Position numbers and translations under genes: made by a program
Shown here: piece by piece, positions 14,793 to 52,866 of the stretch
Numbering within the stretch: the first letter of the stretch is position 1
How the letters are laid out: each line of letters begins with the position of its first letter
Notes under the pieces: model-generated
What the model was told of the DNA's origin: nothing
The model's database searches: none
What the model saw: the letters and a program-made list of their open reading frames with translations, nothing else
NCBI GenBank assembly: GCA_018241725.1
Contig: JAFEDI010000094.1
Coordinates: 1 to 55,481, forward strand
DNA length: 55,481 bases
Direction: 5' to 3'
Origin: Pseudomonadota bacterium
GTDB lineage: Bacteria; Pseudomonadota; Gammaproteobacteria; Burkholderiales; Rhodocyclaceae

Positions 14793-16373
14793 ATGAACGT
14801 CAAGCGCTACTTTGCCAAAACCGCTCGCGAAGCCCTTCGCATGCTGAAGGAGGATCTTGGGCCGGATGCGGTGGTGCTTTCCAATCGCGCGGCCAATGGA
14901 GGCGTGGAGATTCTTGCGTTGCCGGCTGGTGATGTGGCCAGCATGCAATCGGCCCAGCGTGCCCGCAGCCAGGCATCGGCTGCGTCGGCCCCCGCAGCGG
15001 CACCTGCGGCGGCTCCGAAGGCCTCGAAGGCTCCGGAGGATTTTTTCGATGACGATTTCCGGGTCAGCCTGTCGAGGGCTGCGGGCAATCGTCAGCAGGC
15101 CCCGTCGGTGGCTCCCGTGCAGGCAGCACCGCGCCCGGCCCCGCAGCGTCCGGCCCCGGCAGTGCAGAGCCCTGCTCCGGCGGTGCAGAGCTTCACGCCG
15201 CCGCGGGTCGAGCTGAACCGCGATGTGTTCAATGCAGCGTCGGCCCAGGTTCGCCGTCCGCTGGCGGAGCATGCGGTGGCGCCGCAGACGCCGGCACCGC
15301 GTTCGCCCTTGCGCAGTGAGCCGACGCCGCCACGGGAGGCAGTGCCGTCCCGCGACAACGCAGCACGCCAGCGTCCGGCGGGTATCGAAGAGGAAGCGCG
15401 TATCCGCGCCCTGGAGAATGCCAATTCCCAGATGGCCAATGAACTGGCTGCGATCCGCGGCATGCTGGAGCGCCAGCTTGCCGGTTTTGCCTGGGGAGAA
15501 ATGGCCCGTACCGCACCGGGACGCACCCGGCTGATCGGTGACTTGCTGGAGGCGGGCTTCTCTGCTGTGCTGGCCCGCGAGCTGGCCGAAGAGGTGCCTG
15601 AAGACGAGGCGCCGGAGGAGGCCCATCGCCTGCTGCAGGCGGCGCTCGATCAGCGCTTCCGTTCGATGGCCAGCGATGTGGACATCATCGACCGGGGCGG
15701 TGTGTATGCATTGGTTGGCCCTACCGGCGTCGGCAAGACCACCACCACGGCCAAGCTCGCCGCACGCTGCGTCGTGCGCCACGGGGCCGACAAGCTGGCC
15801 TTGATCACCACTGACGGCTACCGGATCGGCGCCCACGAACAGCTACGCATCTATGGCCGGATTCTCGGCGTACCGGTCTTTGTCGTGCGTGACGCGACAG
15901 ATCTGCGTGAAACCCTGGCCGGTCTGCGTGACAAGCATATGGTGCTGATCGACACGATGGGCATGAGCCAGCGCGACAAGATGGTGGCCGAGCAGGCCGC
16001 GATGCTGACGGGGGCCGGCAAGGTGTCGCGCCTGCTGCTGCTCAATGCCACCAGCCGTGGCGATACCCTCGACGACGTGGTCGATGCCTATGCTGGCGAC
16101 GATCTGGCTGGGGTGATCCTCACCAAGATGGACGAGGCCATGTCGCTGGCGCCGGTCCTCGACGTGGCAGTCCGCCGTCAGGTGGAAGTCTTCTACGTGG
16201 CCAACGGTCAGCGGGTGCCGGAGGATCTGCATCTGCCCAATCGGGACAAGCTCCTCGGCCAGGCGCTGCGCGAGTTGCCCGCCGCCTCGCCGTTCCGTCT
16301 CGACCCCCTGGAGGCCGGCCTGCTGCTGGCCACGGGCGGCAAGGGGAGTGCCAGTCTGAGGGGAGGCCTCTAA
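14793..16373 (+). CDS. flhF: FlhF, SRP-type GTPase for flagellar placement
   Basis: FlhF is an SRP-family GTPase that directs assembly of polar flagella. The protein has 526 residues from the ATG at 14793, which follows a good GGAGACAGGAGC site. The basic N-terminal B domain (MNVKRYFAKTAREALRMLKEDLG) is followed by a low-complexity alanine- and proline-rich linker (about 60-200). The N domain and the G domain come next, with the P-loop GPTGVGKTTTTAKLAA near residue 309, DTMGMSQRD (G3-like) and TKMDEA (G4-like). It lies one base ahead of the flhG-like gene, a pair normally acting together. Confidence 0.95.
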   Translation: MNVKRYFAKTAREALRMLKEDLGPDAVVLSNRAANGGVEILALPAGDVASMQSAQRARSQASAASAPAAAPAAAPKASKAPEDFFDDDFRVSLSRAAGNRQQAPSVAPVQAAPRPAPQRPAPAVQSPAPAVQSFTPPRVELNRDVFNAASAQVRRPLAEHAVAPQTPAPRSPLRSEPTPPREAVPSRDNAARQRPAGIEEEARIRALENANSQMANELAAIRGMLERQLAGFAWGEMARTAPGRTRLIGDLLEAGFSAVLARELAEEVPEDEAPEEAHRLLQAALDQRFRSMASDVDIIDRGGVYALVGPTGVGKTTTTAKLAARCVVRHGADKLALITTDGYRIGAHEQLRIYGRILGVPVFVVRDATDLRETLAGLRDKHMVLIDTMGMSQRDKMVAEQAAMLTGAGKVSRLLLLNATSRGDTLDDVVDAYAGDDLAGVILTKMDEAMSLAPVLDVAVRRQVEVFYVANGQRVPEDLHLPNRDKLLGQALRELPAASPFRLDPLEAGLLLATGGKGSASLRGGL

Positions 16374-49500: not shown

Positions 49501-49561
49501 GGCGAACCTCCTAGGTGTTTGAAGAATCGATCCTGTGTTTTTGTGATTCTCGCCAGTATCC

Positions 49562-49577
49562 AGCAGGGAATGTGCCA
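49562..49577 (-). promoter_or_regulatory. Sigma-54 promoter for the PEP-CTERM gene
   Basis: On the minus strand TGGCACA, four bases, then CTGCT keep the invariant GG and GC at sigma-54 spacing (plus coordinates 49577 down to 49562). Transcription would begin near 49550, about 50 bases before the start codon. Regulation of PEP-CTERM genes by RpoN with the PrsK/PrsR pair is known from floc-forming bacteria. Confidence 0.7.
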
Positions 49578-49637
49578 AATTACCTTTGTTTTCGTTAATT
49601 GGTTTTGTTATATGAATTTTTTTGAGAATCGTAGTTT

Positions 49638-49718
49638 TTTGGCATATTGCCAAATTAGGCGATTGTAAAGATTCCTGACACGCCCATAAGGCGAGTCCCT
49701 ATGGAACTACTCCCATAG
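49638..49718. promoter_or_regulatory. Inverted repeats in the PEP-CTERM/antiporter divergent gap
   Basis: The 309-base gap 49501-49809 is AT-rich in its middle part and carries no gene. Besides the sigma-54-type site it contains a perfect 17-bp palindrome TTTGGCA-TAT-TGCCAAA (49638-49654) and a second repeat CTATGG (49699-49704) with CCATAG (49713-49718). The first lies about 75 bases ahead of the sigma-54-type box, the usual place for an enhancer-binding protein. Either could also serve the antiporter promoter. Confidence 0.5.
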
Positions 49719-49809
49719 TTTCTGTCGTATTGTTTCCTTATCCTTCCACGGGCATCCGGGTCTCCGGTTTGTGAGAGACTCGGCATTCCATTGTTGTGCA
49801 TCGAAATCC

Positions 49810-51594
49810 ATGCAATCCCTGACCACTCTTGCCGCCCTGCTGCTGGCCTCCGTGCTGCTCGTTCCCTTCTTCAAGCGGGCTGGGCTGGGCACGGTGCTGG
49901 GCTATCTGGCGGTCGGGGTGTTGATCGGTCCGTTCGGGGTGAAGCTGGTGCGCGACCCGGACAACCTGCTCCACACCGCCGAACTGGGCGTGGTGCTGCT
50001 GCTCTTCGTGATCGGTCTGGAACTCAAGCCCTCGCGGCTGTGGGCCCTGCGGCGCTCGGTGTTCGGCCTGGGGGCGCTGCAACTGTTCGGCGTGGCCGCG
50101 GCGCTGGCCGGCGCCGGGCGCTATCTGGGCCTGTCGTGGCCGGCGGCGACGGTGGTGGGGATCATCCTGGCCTTGTCGTCGACGGCCTTTGTGCTGCCGA
50201 CCCTCGCCGAGCGGCGCGAACTTTCAACCCGTCATGGGCGCGAAGCTTTCGCGATTTTGCTGTTTCAGGATTTATCTGTCATTCCGCTGCTGGCCTTGAT
50301 TCCGCTGTTCGGTACCGGGCGGCCGACGGCGCTGACCCACCCGGCGGTGGGCCTCGGCTTGCTGGCAGTGGTGGCGGTGATCGGCCGGCCGACGCTGGAC
50401 ATGTTGTTCCGCCATGTGGCGCGGGTGAACAGCCGGGAAATGTTCACCGCTGCCGCACTGGCGACGGTGCTGGGCCTGGCGCTGCTGATGCAGGCGGGCG
50501 GCTTGTCCATGTCCCTCGGCGCTTTCGTGGCGGGCGTATTGCTGGCCGACTCCGAATTCCGCCATGAACTGGAAGCGGCCATCGCGCCTTTCCAGGGTTT
50601 GCTGCTGGGCCTGTTCTTCATGGCCGTCGGGATGTCCACCAACATCGAGCTGCTGCTCAAGTTCCCCTGGCAGATCATCCAGCTCACCGCCGGGCTGATC
50701 GTCGTGAAGGGTGTGGTGTTGTTCGTGCTGCGGCGCCTGTTCGGCGGCACGACGGGGGACGCGCGCCTGCTGGCGCTGGCGCTGGCCCAGGGCGGTGAAT
50801 TCGCCTTCGTGCTGTTCGATGCGGCCCAGTCCTTCCGCGTGCTCGGCGAGGTGCAGGCCGACAAGCTGACGCTGGTGGTGGCGATGTCGATGGCCGTGTC
50901 GCCGCTGCTCTTGATGTTTGGCGACTGGCTGGCCAGGTCGGCCAGGAAGAATGAAGTGCCGCGGGACTTCGACGAGATGCCGGCGGAGGGGAGCGAAGTG
51001 GTGATCGCGGGCTTCGGGCGTGTCGGGCAGGTCGTCGGGCGCCTGTTGCTGGCGCGGGGCATCAGCTTCACGGCGCTGGATTCCGATGCTGGCCAGGTGG
51101 ATACCGTGCGCCGTTTTGGCCTCAAGGTTTTCTACGGCGATGCGGCCCACCTGGATCTGCTGCATGCGGCGCAGATCGGCCAGGCCAAGGTCTTCGTGCT
51201 GGCCATCGACGATGTGGAAGCATCGCTGCGTACCGCCGAGCTGGTGCGCAAGCATTTCCCACATGTGCAGATCGTCGCGCGGGCGCGCAACCGCTTCCAT
51301 GCCGGCCGCCTGATGGACCTGGGCATCGAGCGGCAGATCCGTGAGGCGCTGCCGTCCAGCCTGGAAATGGCCAAGTGGACGCTGGAACTGCTCAACGAGC
51401 CGCCGGCGCTGGCCGAGCAGATGGTCAATCGCTTCGCCCGCCACGATGCCGAGGTGCTGGCCCGCCAGCAGGCCATCGGCCACGACGAGCACAAGCTCAT
51501 CCAGTCTTCGATGGAGGCCCGCGAGGAGCTGGCCCAGGTGCTGGAGGAGGCCCGCGTGGCCTTCACCCGCAAGGGGCGCGGCGCCACGTCCTGA
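49810..51594 (+). CDS. Kef-type monovalent cation:proton antiporter (CPA2) with RCK domain
   Basis: The 594-residue protein has an N-terminal membrane domain of about twelve segments (about 1-385), beginning MQSLTTLAALLLASVLLVPFFKRAGLGTVLGYLAVGVLIGP. A cytoplasmic TrkA-N/RCK domain follows (about 398-520), with Rossmann motif VVIAGFGRVGQVVGRLL. The organisation is that of glutathione-gated potassium efflux systems KefB/KefC. The extended glutamate- and glutamine-rich helix of KefC around the pore is not evident, so gating may differ. I chose the ATG at 49810, because upstream residues have no membrane-domain similarity. Confidence 0.91.
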   Translation: MQSLTTLAALLLASVLLVPFFKRAGLGTVLGYLAVGVLIGPFGVKLVRDPDNLLHTAELGVVLLLFVIGLELKPSRLWALRRSVFGLGALQLFGVAAALAGAGRYLGLSWPAATVVGIILALSSTAFVLPTLAERRELSTRHGREAFAILLFQDLSVIPLLALIPLFGTGRPTALTHPAVGLGLLAVVAVIGRPTLDMLFRHVARVNSREMFTAAALATVLGLALLMQAGGLSMSLGAFVAGVLLADSEFRHELEAAIAPFQGLLLGLFFMAVGMSTNIELLLKFPWQIIQLTAGLIVVKGVVLFVLRRLFGGTTGDARLLALALAQGGEFAFVLFDAAQSFRVLGEVQADKLTLVVAMSMAVSPLLLMFGDWLARSARKNEVPRDFDEMPAEGSEVVIAGFGRVGQVVGRLLLARGISFTALDSDAGQVDTVRRFGLKVFYGDAAHLDLLHAAQIGQAKVFVLAIDDVEASLRTAELVRKHFPHVQIVARARNRFHAGRLMDLGIERQIREALPSSLEMAKWTLELLNEPPALAEQMVNRFARHDAEVLARQQAIGHDEHKLIQSSMEAREELAQVLEEARVAFTRKGRGATS

Positions 51595-51635
51595 GCCTGC
51601 GTCGCCCTGCGGGGCGGCGCGGAGGCGCCGACGGG

Positions 51636-51935
51636 ATGATTTTTTCCCGCGAAAAAATCGTTTTTCCGGATGAAAAAAGTCTTTTGTCACATGACAAAAA
51701 GCTCGGGGCACGTCACTCGATGATCGAGTGGCCTGTCAAAACCGTTTTGTCACGCCGCCCGGTAATTTTTTGGCATGTCCCGCCGATCCGGTGGTGTGGC
51801 GCAACGATTCCGTCTGGTCACCGGGCGATTCCTCGGCGTGAAAAATCCAGTTTTTCCCATGAAAAAACGGATTTTTCGCCCGAAAAAATGATTTTGTGGC
51901 TCCACCGGATGATTCCGCGGCGCCACAAAATCATT
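51636..51935. repeat. Tandem array of about 14 degenerate 21-bp palindromic units
   Basis: From 51636, the sequence divides into consecutive 21-bp units with no insertion or deletion. They begin at 51636, 51657, 51678, 51699, 51720, 51741, 51762, 51783, 51804, 51825, 51846, 51867, 51888 and 51909, with a part unit at 51930. The approximate core is ATTTTTTCG-CRT-GAAAAA. Positions 5-6 are T in nearly all units, and the last codon-like triplet is mostly AAA, CGG or CCG. Many units fold on themselves with different but matched arms (TTTTTC with GAAAAA; TTTTGTCA with TGACAAAA). One plus-strand frame stays open through the array as seven-residue repeats such as IFSREKI, VFPDEKS, LLSHDKK. The 336-base gap 51595-51930 holds no recognisable gene. 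Confidence 0.85.
51887..51935. terminator. 14-bp inverted repeat at the array end, possible two-way terminator
   Basis: AATGATTTTGTGGC (51887-51900) pairs perfectly with GCCACAAAATCATT (51922-51935) across a 21-base loop. It is made by units 13-15 of the array. The right arm overlaps the asparaginase stop codon (51931-51933). It lies between the convergent antiporter and asparaginase genes, so a termination role is possible, though no long T-run follows. Confidence 0.5.
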
Positions 51936-52866
51936 CTTCCAGCTGCAGAAAGCTCTGGGTTTCGCCGCCACGGGCGAGGGCCAGCATCAGCGCGATGCGG
52001 GCCTTGGCGGGGGGCAGGTCGCCGGCGGTGAGCCAGCCTTCCCGGTCGTCGTCGGCGTTGGCGTTGTGGATCACCGGGCCGGCGCAGCGGCTGGCACGCA
52101 GGATCGCCACGCCGTGTTCTCGGGCCCGGGCGAGGGCCGGCTGCCAGGCCGCGGGCACGCTGCCGTGGCCGGTGAGGGCCAGCACCAGGCCGCGGGCGCC
52201 GGACGCGATGCAGGCGTCCACCAGCTCGGGCGGCGCACCGGCGTAGCCCATCAGCACATCCACCCGTGGCAGCGTGGCCGGGCTCAGGTCGGCGCAGCGC
52301 CCGTCGGGGCGGCCGTCGGTCCACGGGCGGGGCGATTCGAAGGCGTCCAGCCCCGTCGTACGGGCCTTGGTGAGCCAGCGCGCCGGGTAGGCCGTCCGGT
52401 TCATCACCGCCAGCACGCCCTTGCCCCGGGCGCTCGGGCTGGCGGCCAGACACACCGCGGCGCGGAGGTTGGCCGGGCCGTCGGGCTGCGGGTGGTCGGC
52501 CGGGCGCATCGCGCCGGTCAGCACCACCGGTTTGTCGCCGGGCAGCGTGAGGTGCAGGAAATAGGCGCTCTCTTCCAGGGTGTCGGTGCCGTGCAGGATC
52601 ACGATGCCGGCGATGGCCGGGTCGGCCAGCGCGCGGCGCGCGGCGGCGAGGACCACCAGCCAGTCGGCCGGCGTCATGTCCTTGCTGTCGAGGGACAGGA
52701 TCTGCTCGGCACTCAGTTCGGCGGTGGCGTCCAGTCCGGGGACTGCCGCCAGCAGTTGCTCCACCGGCCGCACGCCGGCCCGGTAGCGGGGGCTGTCGGC
52801 GGCGGGATCGGCTTCGCCGGCGATGGTGCCGCCGGTGGCCAGCAGGTGGATGCGTGGGCGGGTCAT
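51931..52866 (-). CDS. L-asparaginase/glutaminase family amidohydrolase
   Basis: The 311-residue enzyme would convert asparagine to aspartate and ammonia. Both active-site threonine motifs are present: LLATGGTIAGEA (residues 8-19) and IVILHGTDTLEESAYF (near residue 88). Lysine and aspartate of the second site are in the usual places (SLDSKDMTPADW). No signal peptide is seen, so it is probably cytoplasmic. It starts 21 bases after the ABC transporter ATPase gene, forming the last gene of an acidic amino acid uptake operon. Confidence 0.92.
   Translation of the reverse strand: MTRPRIHLLATGGTIAGEADPAADSPRYRAGVRPVEQLLAAVPGLDATAELSAEQILSLDSKDMTPADWLVVLAAARRALADPAIAGIVILHGTDTLEESAYFLHLTLPGDKPVVLTGAMRPADHPQPDGPANLRAAVCLAASPSARGKGVLAVMNRTAYPARWLTKARTTGLDAFESPRPWTDGRPDGRCADLSPATLPRVDVLMGYAGAPPELVDACIASGARGLVLALTGHGSVPAAWQPALARAREHGVAILRASRCAGPVIHNANADDDREGWLTAGDLPPAKARIALMLALARGGETQSFLQLEE

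What the first reader, a model, noticed from the sequence alone, without database searches (positions are those of the whole stretch)
51636..51935. Hidden 21-bp tandem array with perfect register between two convergent genes
About fourteen consecutive 21-bp units, with no insertion or deletion between them, fill the gap after the antiporter gene. Individual units have diverged strongly, yet phase is kept over nearly 300 bp, and T at unit positions 5-6 plus an AAA or CGG/CCG end recur. No spacers separate the units, so it is not CRISPR-like. It resembles no REP, ERIC or attC element I know. Twenty-one bp equals seven codons and about two DNA turns, so a coding origin, a protein-binding array or a multi-hairpin RNA are all possible.
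Basis: seen in the sequence. Interest (0 to 1): 0.85.

Follow-up and report, generated by a model that had tools for sequence, protein, structure and literature searches.

The report
Mobile phased 21-bp palindrome array
Between two genes of a Zoogloea bacterium lies a 300-base insert made of palindromic 21-base units kept exactly two DNA turns apart, with several relatives elsewhere in this and related genomes, which looks like an undescribed DNA element shaped by a protein that coats it.

Summary
Fifteen 21-bp units (51636-51950) follow each other without an indel; lag-21 self-match is 0.523 (z 10.1; 0 of 500 shuffles reach it at any lag from 5 to 44). It is one of a family: 27 places in 8 Zoogloea genomes share the lattice and a self-complementary, degenerate unit, about ATSATTTTKTCRYRTGAMAAA. 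The arrays are insertions: empty junctions exist in relatives at two loci, and one genome holds much the same array at three loci. Out-of-phase gaps are about four times rarer per substitution than in control intergenic DNA (this depends on gap cost), most larger gaps are 21 or 42 bp, and six symmetric unit positions change 2.3 times less than the rest. No frame reads as coding. Base pairing explains little overall, since positions 11/16 and 6/21 vary independently, although some arrays, this one included, fold better than half-site shuffles. G+C is not 10.5-bp periodic. Best reading: a mobile, non-coding element selected as a cooperative binding array for a dimeric DNA-binding protein, one dimer per two helical turns. 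Protein, movement and purpose are unknown. Three aimed literature searches listed no such element.

The parts
51636..51950 (.). array of 15 contiguous 21-bp units, no indel; self-complementary, so no strand
   Evidence: phase start taken from the shared unit of all arrays
51630..51635 (.). partial unit at the left margin (GACGGG)
51636..51698 (.). units 1-3, T-type (TTTTTTC..GAAAAA) and TTTTGTCACATGACAAA type at the left end
   Evidence: T at position 9 is enriched at both ends of arrays (p 2e-7)
51699..51824 (.). units 4-9, mixed, mostly G+C-richer half-sites
51825..51887 (.). units 10-12, T-type from the right half of unit 10 on
51883..51890 (.). approximate place where two relatives carry 42 bp (two units) more
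   Evidence: ortholog alignment
51890..51932 (.). long inverted repeat, 11-bp perfect arms 51890-51900 and 51922-51932
   Evidence: seen in sequence; stem in folds of both strands
49771..51594 (+). cation/proton antiporter gene with TrkA-N domain, convergent left neighbour
51931..52866 (-). asparaginase gene, convergent right neighbour; its stop codon lies in unit 15

Best explanation
The array is one copy of a non-coding insertion element of Zoogloea, mostly 220-450 bp, built of alternately inverted half-sites of about 10 bp so that a dyad recurs every 21 bp, two helical turns. Shown: several inserted copies per genome, conserved phase, symmetric slow positions, no coding frame, empty sites in relatives. 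Inferred: a dimeric DNA-binding protein sits on every unit on one face of the helix and neighbours touch across the second dyad, giving a cooperative coat or wrapped particle, so that a shift by a few bases breaks contacts while base changes within two-letter classes are tolerated. Most speculative: the coat serves as a chromosomal anchor, silencer or centromere-like site, or serves the spread of the element itself.
For: 27 places in 8 genomes hold the lattice: 12 of 27 without any phase slip, 7 with a single one-base slip, 6 with other slips near the left margin only, 2 with slips inside. In 14 orthologous or paralogous array pairs 12 gaps that are not multiples of 21 stand against 909 substitutions, versus 34 per 619 in 23 intergenic control segments aligned alike (Fisher p 1e-5); of the 6 array gaps longer than 2 bp, 5 are 21 or 42 and the sixth is 19, in a pair whose length difference is a multiple of 21; 0 of 34 control gaps are multiples of 21. 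Slow unit positions are 6, 9, 11 and their mirror partners 16, 18, 21 (0.10-0.13 changes per site; pooled 103 of 929 against 583 of 2325 elsewhere, 11 pairs, 3254 of 3410 aligned columns in the same phase). Most of the strongest dependences between positions lie inside one half-site (the arm pair 9/18 ranks 13th). Letters are kept by class: G or T at 9, C or A at 18, G or C at 11 and 16. Empty junctions: locus A in 9 of 9 other orthologous loci, locus B in 4 of 4 array-free genomes with both flanking genes in the fetched locus. Much the same array at three loci of genome G018.
Against: No binding protein was found, and no co-distributed gene was looked for. Neighbouring genes are ordinary and differ between loci. 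Two-letter classes are unusual for one protein. Facing arms are somewhat more complementary than permuted arms (0.524 against 0.467, 0 of 1000 permutations), though nearly as much so between arms two steps apart (0.512). Some arrays, the window's among them, fold better than their own half-sites shuffled (mean z -1.4 over 20 arrays and both strands; window + strand -2.8), which a pure protein-site model does not predict. With cheap gaps the gap depletion disappears. Arrays in G009, G018 (locus C) and G005 keep the lattice less well. The 14 pairs share members, so its p value is optimistic.
Confidence: 0.58

Rival explanations
1. The array works as RNA or single-stranded DNA: a row of hairpins, for instance a two-way terminator or mRNA end between convergent genes.
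For: Both strands fold far better than dinucleotide shuffles (z -8.0 and -6.2); excess over half-site shuffles in several arrays, e.g. L112 z -3.9, L102 -3.2, window -2.8 on the + strand; facing arms more complementary than permuted ones and position 9/18 covaries; loci A and B lie between convergent genes.
Against: 11/16 pair 0.521 observed, 0.527 expected; 6/21 0.622 and 0.621. The excess is small or absent in others (L103, L105, L111, L115). Hairpins do not need a 21-bp lattice. Loci C and D lie upstream of genes. Rfam gave two weak hits, far below gathering scores and both outside the array.
Confidence: 0.15
2. The array is a DNA-architecture signal without a dedicated protein: phased bendability that wraps DNA round gyrase or another general factor.
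For: Unit length is two turns; A and T tracts recur in phase; purine/pyrimidine and keto/amino classes do have 10.5-bp power (5.7 and 6.2); the E. coli gyrase motif is degenerate, 130 bp and has a 10.75-bp G+C rhythm (PMC6379681, passages).
Against: G+C has almost no 10.5- or 10.75-bp power here (1.4 and 1.2, white noise 1), against 5.8 at 21 and 5.3 at 7. 8.5 of 14.3 bits per unit are not S/W information, and positions 9 and 18 carry K/M information with no G+C bias.
Confidence: 0.13
3. The array is a neutral relic: an old minisatellite or MITE-like repeat whose units decay without function, kept in phase only because it is young.
For: Arrays are inserted and patchy, and change about as fast as fourfold sites of neighbouring genes at locus A and faster at locus B; with cheap gaps no gap depletion was seen.
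Against: Units differ by about half their bases yet keep phase; out-of-phase gaps are depleted with a costlier gap; slow positions are symmetric.
Confidence: 0.1
4. A heptapeptide-coding repeat or decayed gene.
For: 21 is seven codons and one frame runs open through the arrays of the window and of C120.
Against: Stops in all six frames over 21 arrays (25 of 2279 codons in the most open frame) and slowest change at its third codon position; no Pfam match for the two open frames tested.
Confidence: 0.02

Closest known systems
REP, BIME and REPIN elements (palindromic intergenic repeats)
   Same: Short, intergenic, palindromic, several copies, non-coding
   Different: Here some 9-20 dyads are fused without spacers at 21 bp and diverge by about half; no shared stem sequence; a handful of copies per genome, not hundreds (REP features recalled, and from the listing)
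Plasmid centromere-like arrays (parC of ParMRC, heptad parS of pSM19035)
   Same: Contiguous short repeats, some inverted, where contiguity matters for a dimeric protein coat (PMC9499535 and PMC5016525, passages)
   Different: Probably chromosomal, several loci per genome, more degenerate, no par genes among the 30 neighbours scanned
Gyrase binding motif and strong gyrase sites
   Same: Long degenerate phased signal
   Different: No 10.5-bp G+C rhythm; base classes beyond G+C are constrained
MITEs
   Same: Small non-coding inserts with empty sites
   Different: No clear terminal inverted repeat or target duplication was seen by eye; nearly the whole element is the array
CRISPR, attC, minisatellites
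   Same: Repeated units
   Different: No spacers, no conserved repeat, units diverged but phase kept; attC features recalled, not tested

Membership tests
CRISPR array | near-identical repeats separated by unique spacers | tested here: not met
   contiguous 21-bp units without spacers, about half-identical
REP/BIME | conserved GC-rich 20-40 bp palindrome in many copies, RAYT nearby | tested here: not met
   no fixed stem sequence; 1-6 arrays per genome among those read; no REP transposase in 30 scanned neighbour proteins; REP size from the abstract in the listing, the rest recalled
MITE | insertion with empty site in relatives | tested here: met
   locus A 9 of 9, locus B 4 of 4 empty junctions
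MITE | terminal inverted repeats and target duplication | tested here: inconclusive
   read by eye only; no consistent terminus or duplication seen
Minisatellite/VNTR | similar units made by duplication, copy number variable | tested here: inconclusive
   gaps of 21 and 42 bp between orthologs but units too diverged for ordinary slippage
Structured RNA | compensatory base pairing | tested here: inconclusive
   arm positions 6/21 and 11/16 independent, 8/19 and 10/17 nearly so; 9/18 and less so 7/20 covary; arms together exceed permutations; residual fold excess in some arrays
Gyrase motif | about 10.75-bp rhythm of G+C | tested here: not met
   mean power 1.39 at 10.5 and 1.20 at 10.75
Partition centromere (parS/parC array) | contiguous phased repeats | tested here: met
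Partition centromere (parS/parC array) | bound by a ParB/ParR/omega-type protein encoded by a par operon | not tested
   no par gene among 30 scanned neighbours; genomes not searched for par families
Protein-coding repeat | open frame with third-position variability | tested here: not met

The most novel reading that the evidence does not exclude
A categorically new bacterial element: a small mobile DNA that consists of little but a phased lattice of protein-binding dyads, with T-type units at both ends and G-type units in the middle, whose host-encoded coat protein selects every copy for exact two-turn phase while the letters drift within fixed base classes, and whose copies exchange segments within a genome.
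Probability: 0.33. Interest if true: 0.88.

Novelty: new variant of a known kind. Interest (0 to 1): 0.7.

Why it matters
If right, a family of bacterial intergenic DNA is selected for helical phase rather than for its letters, which ordinary repeat finders can miss: Tandem Repeats Finder saw 2.2 of 15 units. It would point to an unknown DNA-coating protein in an activated-sludge genus, give a ready set of natural variants for testing phase rules, and show that gap statistics can reveal nucleoprotein arrays from genomes alone.

Tried and rejected
Rfam search of the region gave two hits far below gathering scores, neither in the array. Plasmid search gave one weak 53-base hit in a Bacillus plasmid, phage search none. 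The match in another family of the order (G477) is a 29% G+C contig with a local three-copy repeat, and the segment around it needs 51 slips; judged unrelated. A first gap count from BLAST alignments with cheap gaps showed no depletion in arrays (0.03-0.07 gaps per substitution against 0.04-0.06 intergenic); I judged part of those gaps to be cancelling artefacts and repeated both sides with one costlier-gap aligner, so the result depends on that choice, though the phase reading agrees. In one search I trimmed the arrays of locus C and kept pairs that share members. For some searches six of 27 arrays were dropped as near-duplicates or fragments (L108, L113, L097, L094, L095, L090; some of them return in the pair counts), also L098, and there only the longest slip-free run of each array was folded. 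The palindrome pattern matched 10 places outside the 27 arrays; I read 8 of the 10: 3 lie in further lattice stretches (the left part of the split array in G018, one each in G009 and G005), 5 look unrelated, of which two were checked for open frames. A J-domain gene beside a 58-bp fragment on C76 led nowhere. An asparaginase tree places the array-free L127 inside the array-bearing group with support of 0.088 only, so loss there is possible.

Full report
What is there. The intergenic stretch between a convergent antiporter gene and an asparaginase gene holds 15 contiguous 21-bp units, 51636-51950. The period is far above chance and gives the strongest 250-bp self-match of all lags from 15 to 44 in the 55-kb window. 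The last unit overlaps the end of the asparaginase gene.

Relatives in the genome. A DNA search of the window's own genome gave three further places at E below 0.001, on contigs C129, C120 and C91; a register model built from the window's units showed that they share the same lattice. A three-unit profile added a 58-bp fragment on C76. The profile found arrays in 8 of 23 genomes of the genus at E 0.01 or better, in 7 of 297 genomes of the family at E 0.001, all in one genus of 68, and in 2 of 300 genomes of the order, one being the window's and the other an A+T-rich match judged false. Two further lattice-like stretches turned up in G005 and one clear and one weak one in G009.

Anatomy. After re-estimation on all loci, 27 places were read in register: 25 of 27 are longer than 200 bp; 12 have no slip, 7 one single-base slip, 6 other slips near the left margin, 2 slips inside. 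A+T-rich non-arrays score only with many slips, for example window 49520-49657 with 9 in 138 bp. The unit is a dyad about positions 13/14 and again about position 3: W at 1 and 5, Y at 6, G or T at 9, C or G at 11, R Y R Y at 12-15, C or G at 16, C or A at 18, R at 21. T at position 9 makes up 0.55, 0.27, 0.16, 0.31 and 0.52 over the five fifths of the arrays (ends against middle p 2e-7), so the array as a whole has an organised shape.

Insertions. At the antiporter/asparaginase junction (locus A) the array is present in the window genome, G016 and G020 and absent in 9 of 9 other orthologous loci read, where the gap between the genes is by eye about 150 bp or less; in L127 it holds a different palindromic repeat. 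At a LysR/sigma-54-regulator junction (locus B) four genomes carry an array and four others with both genes in the fetched locus have, by eye, 10-30 bases between the stop codons. Six genomes share an array upstream of an uncharacterised gene, locus C. In G018 much the same array occurs at three loci, one of them split by an insertion with an integrase-core gene, I take it an IS3-family element; the shared stretch is mostly the array but reaches over 100 bp further left in two of the three. In G021 the array of locus B resembles another array of the same genome in reverse orientation, while none of its positional counterparts is among the 45 best pairs; this suggests exchange or replacement within a genome. 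How copies move is unknown.

Selection. Positional orthologs mostly align unit by unit. The window lacks 42 bp present in its counterparts in G016 and G020. Counted with one aligner, arrays show 12 out-of-phase gaps per 909 substitutions and intergenic controls 34 per 619; a cheaper-gap count showed no difference, so this test depends on the gap cost, while the register reading does not use those alignments. Change per site, over 11 pairs, is lowest at 6, 9, 11, 16, 18, 21 (0.10-0.13) and highest at 2-4, 13, 14, 17 (0.28-0.37); the low set is symmetric about the dyad, as a bound dimer would impose.

What it is not. Not coding: all six frames have stops across 21 arrays and third positions of the most open frame change least. 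Not mainly a hairpin: of six arm pairs 9/18 and, less so, 7/20 covary, while 6/21 and 11/16 are independent; the arms as a whole exceed permutations for facing arms (0 of 1000) but almost as much for arms that do not face each other directly, as expected from patches of like units. Against half-site shuffles the folds are on average 1.4 s.d. more stable, strongly so in some arrays and not at all in others, so a role of pairing in some copies is not excluded. Not a gyrase-type G+C rhythm (motif from PMC6379681, passages).

Mechanism. I take it that a dimer binds each 21-bp unit and neighbours cooperate across the second dyad. Phase and symmetry are shown; the protein, the coat and the purpose are inferred. 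Contiguous repeat arrays whose contiguity matters are known for plasmid partition (PMC9499535, PMC5016525, passages); this is how the array may work, but membership in that class is untested.

Literature. Three full-text searches were aimed at such arrays (listings read, 20 of 47 papers listed) and three at comparison systems; three papers were opened for passages. I saw no description of such arrays. The library lacks most subscription papers.

Noticed in passing
L127 after 5924; L105 near 4090 and 4506; L106 near 3660: A different palindromic repeat, GGGCGAATGAATTCGCCCC or part of it, lies in the array-free junction of locus A and beside two arrays, possibly another repeat family that uses the same intergenic sites.
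   Followed up: no
L095 2374-3855: An insertion with an integrase-core (rve) gene, taken to be IS3-like, interrupts one array of genome G018.
   Followed up: partly
L093 4490-5563: A YhcG-type PDDEXK nuclease gene (DUF1016) stands beside the array in G018; in G019 another gene (MFS transporter) stands there.
   Followed up: no
L094 1191-3683: A type I restriction R-subunit-like gene lies beside array F2 of G018.
   Followed up: no
L138 (G477): Three identical 21-bp copies of AGACTTTTTTGGTGTGAAAAA in a 29% G+C locus, without a longer lattice.
   Followed up: partly
window 15143-15191: A G+C-rich 21-bp tandem repeat of 2.3 copies with another unit.
   Followed up: no
L100 4719-5471 and orthologs: The gene downstream of the locus C arrays (MAKSYY... 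proteins): no Pfam match for the G018 ortholog (L091 1911-2591) and no NCBIfam match for L100 4719-5471.
   Followed up: no
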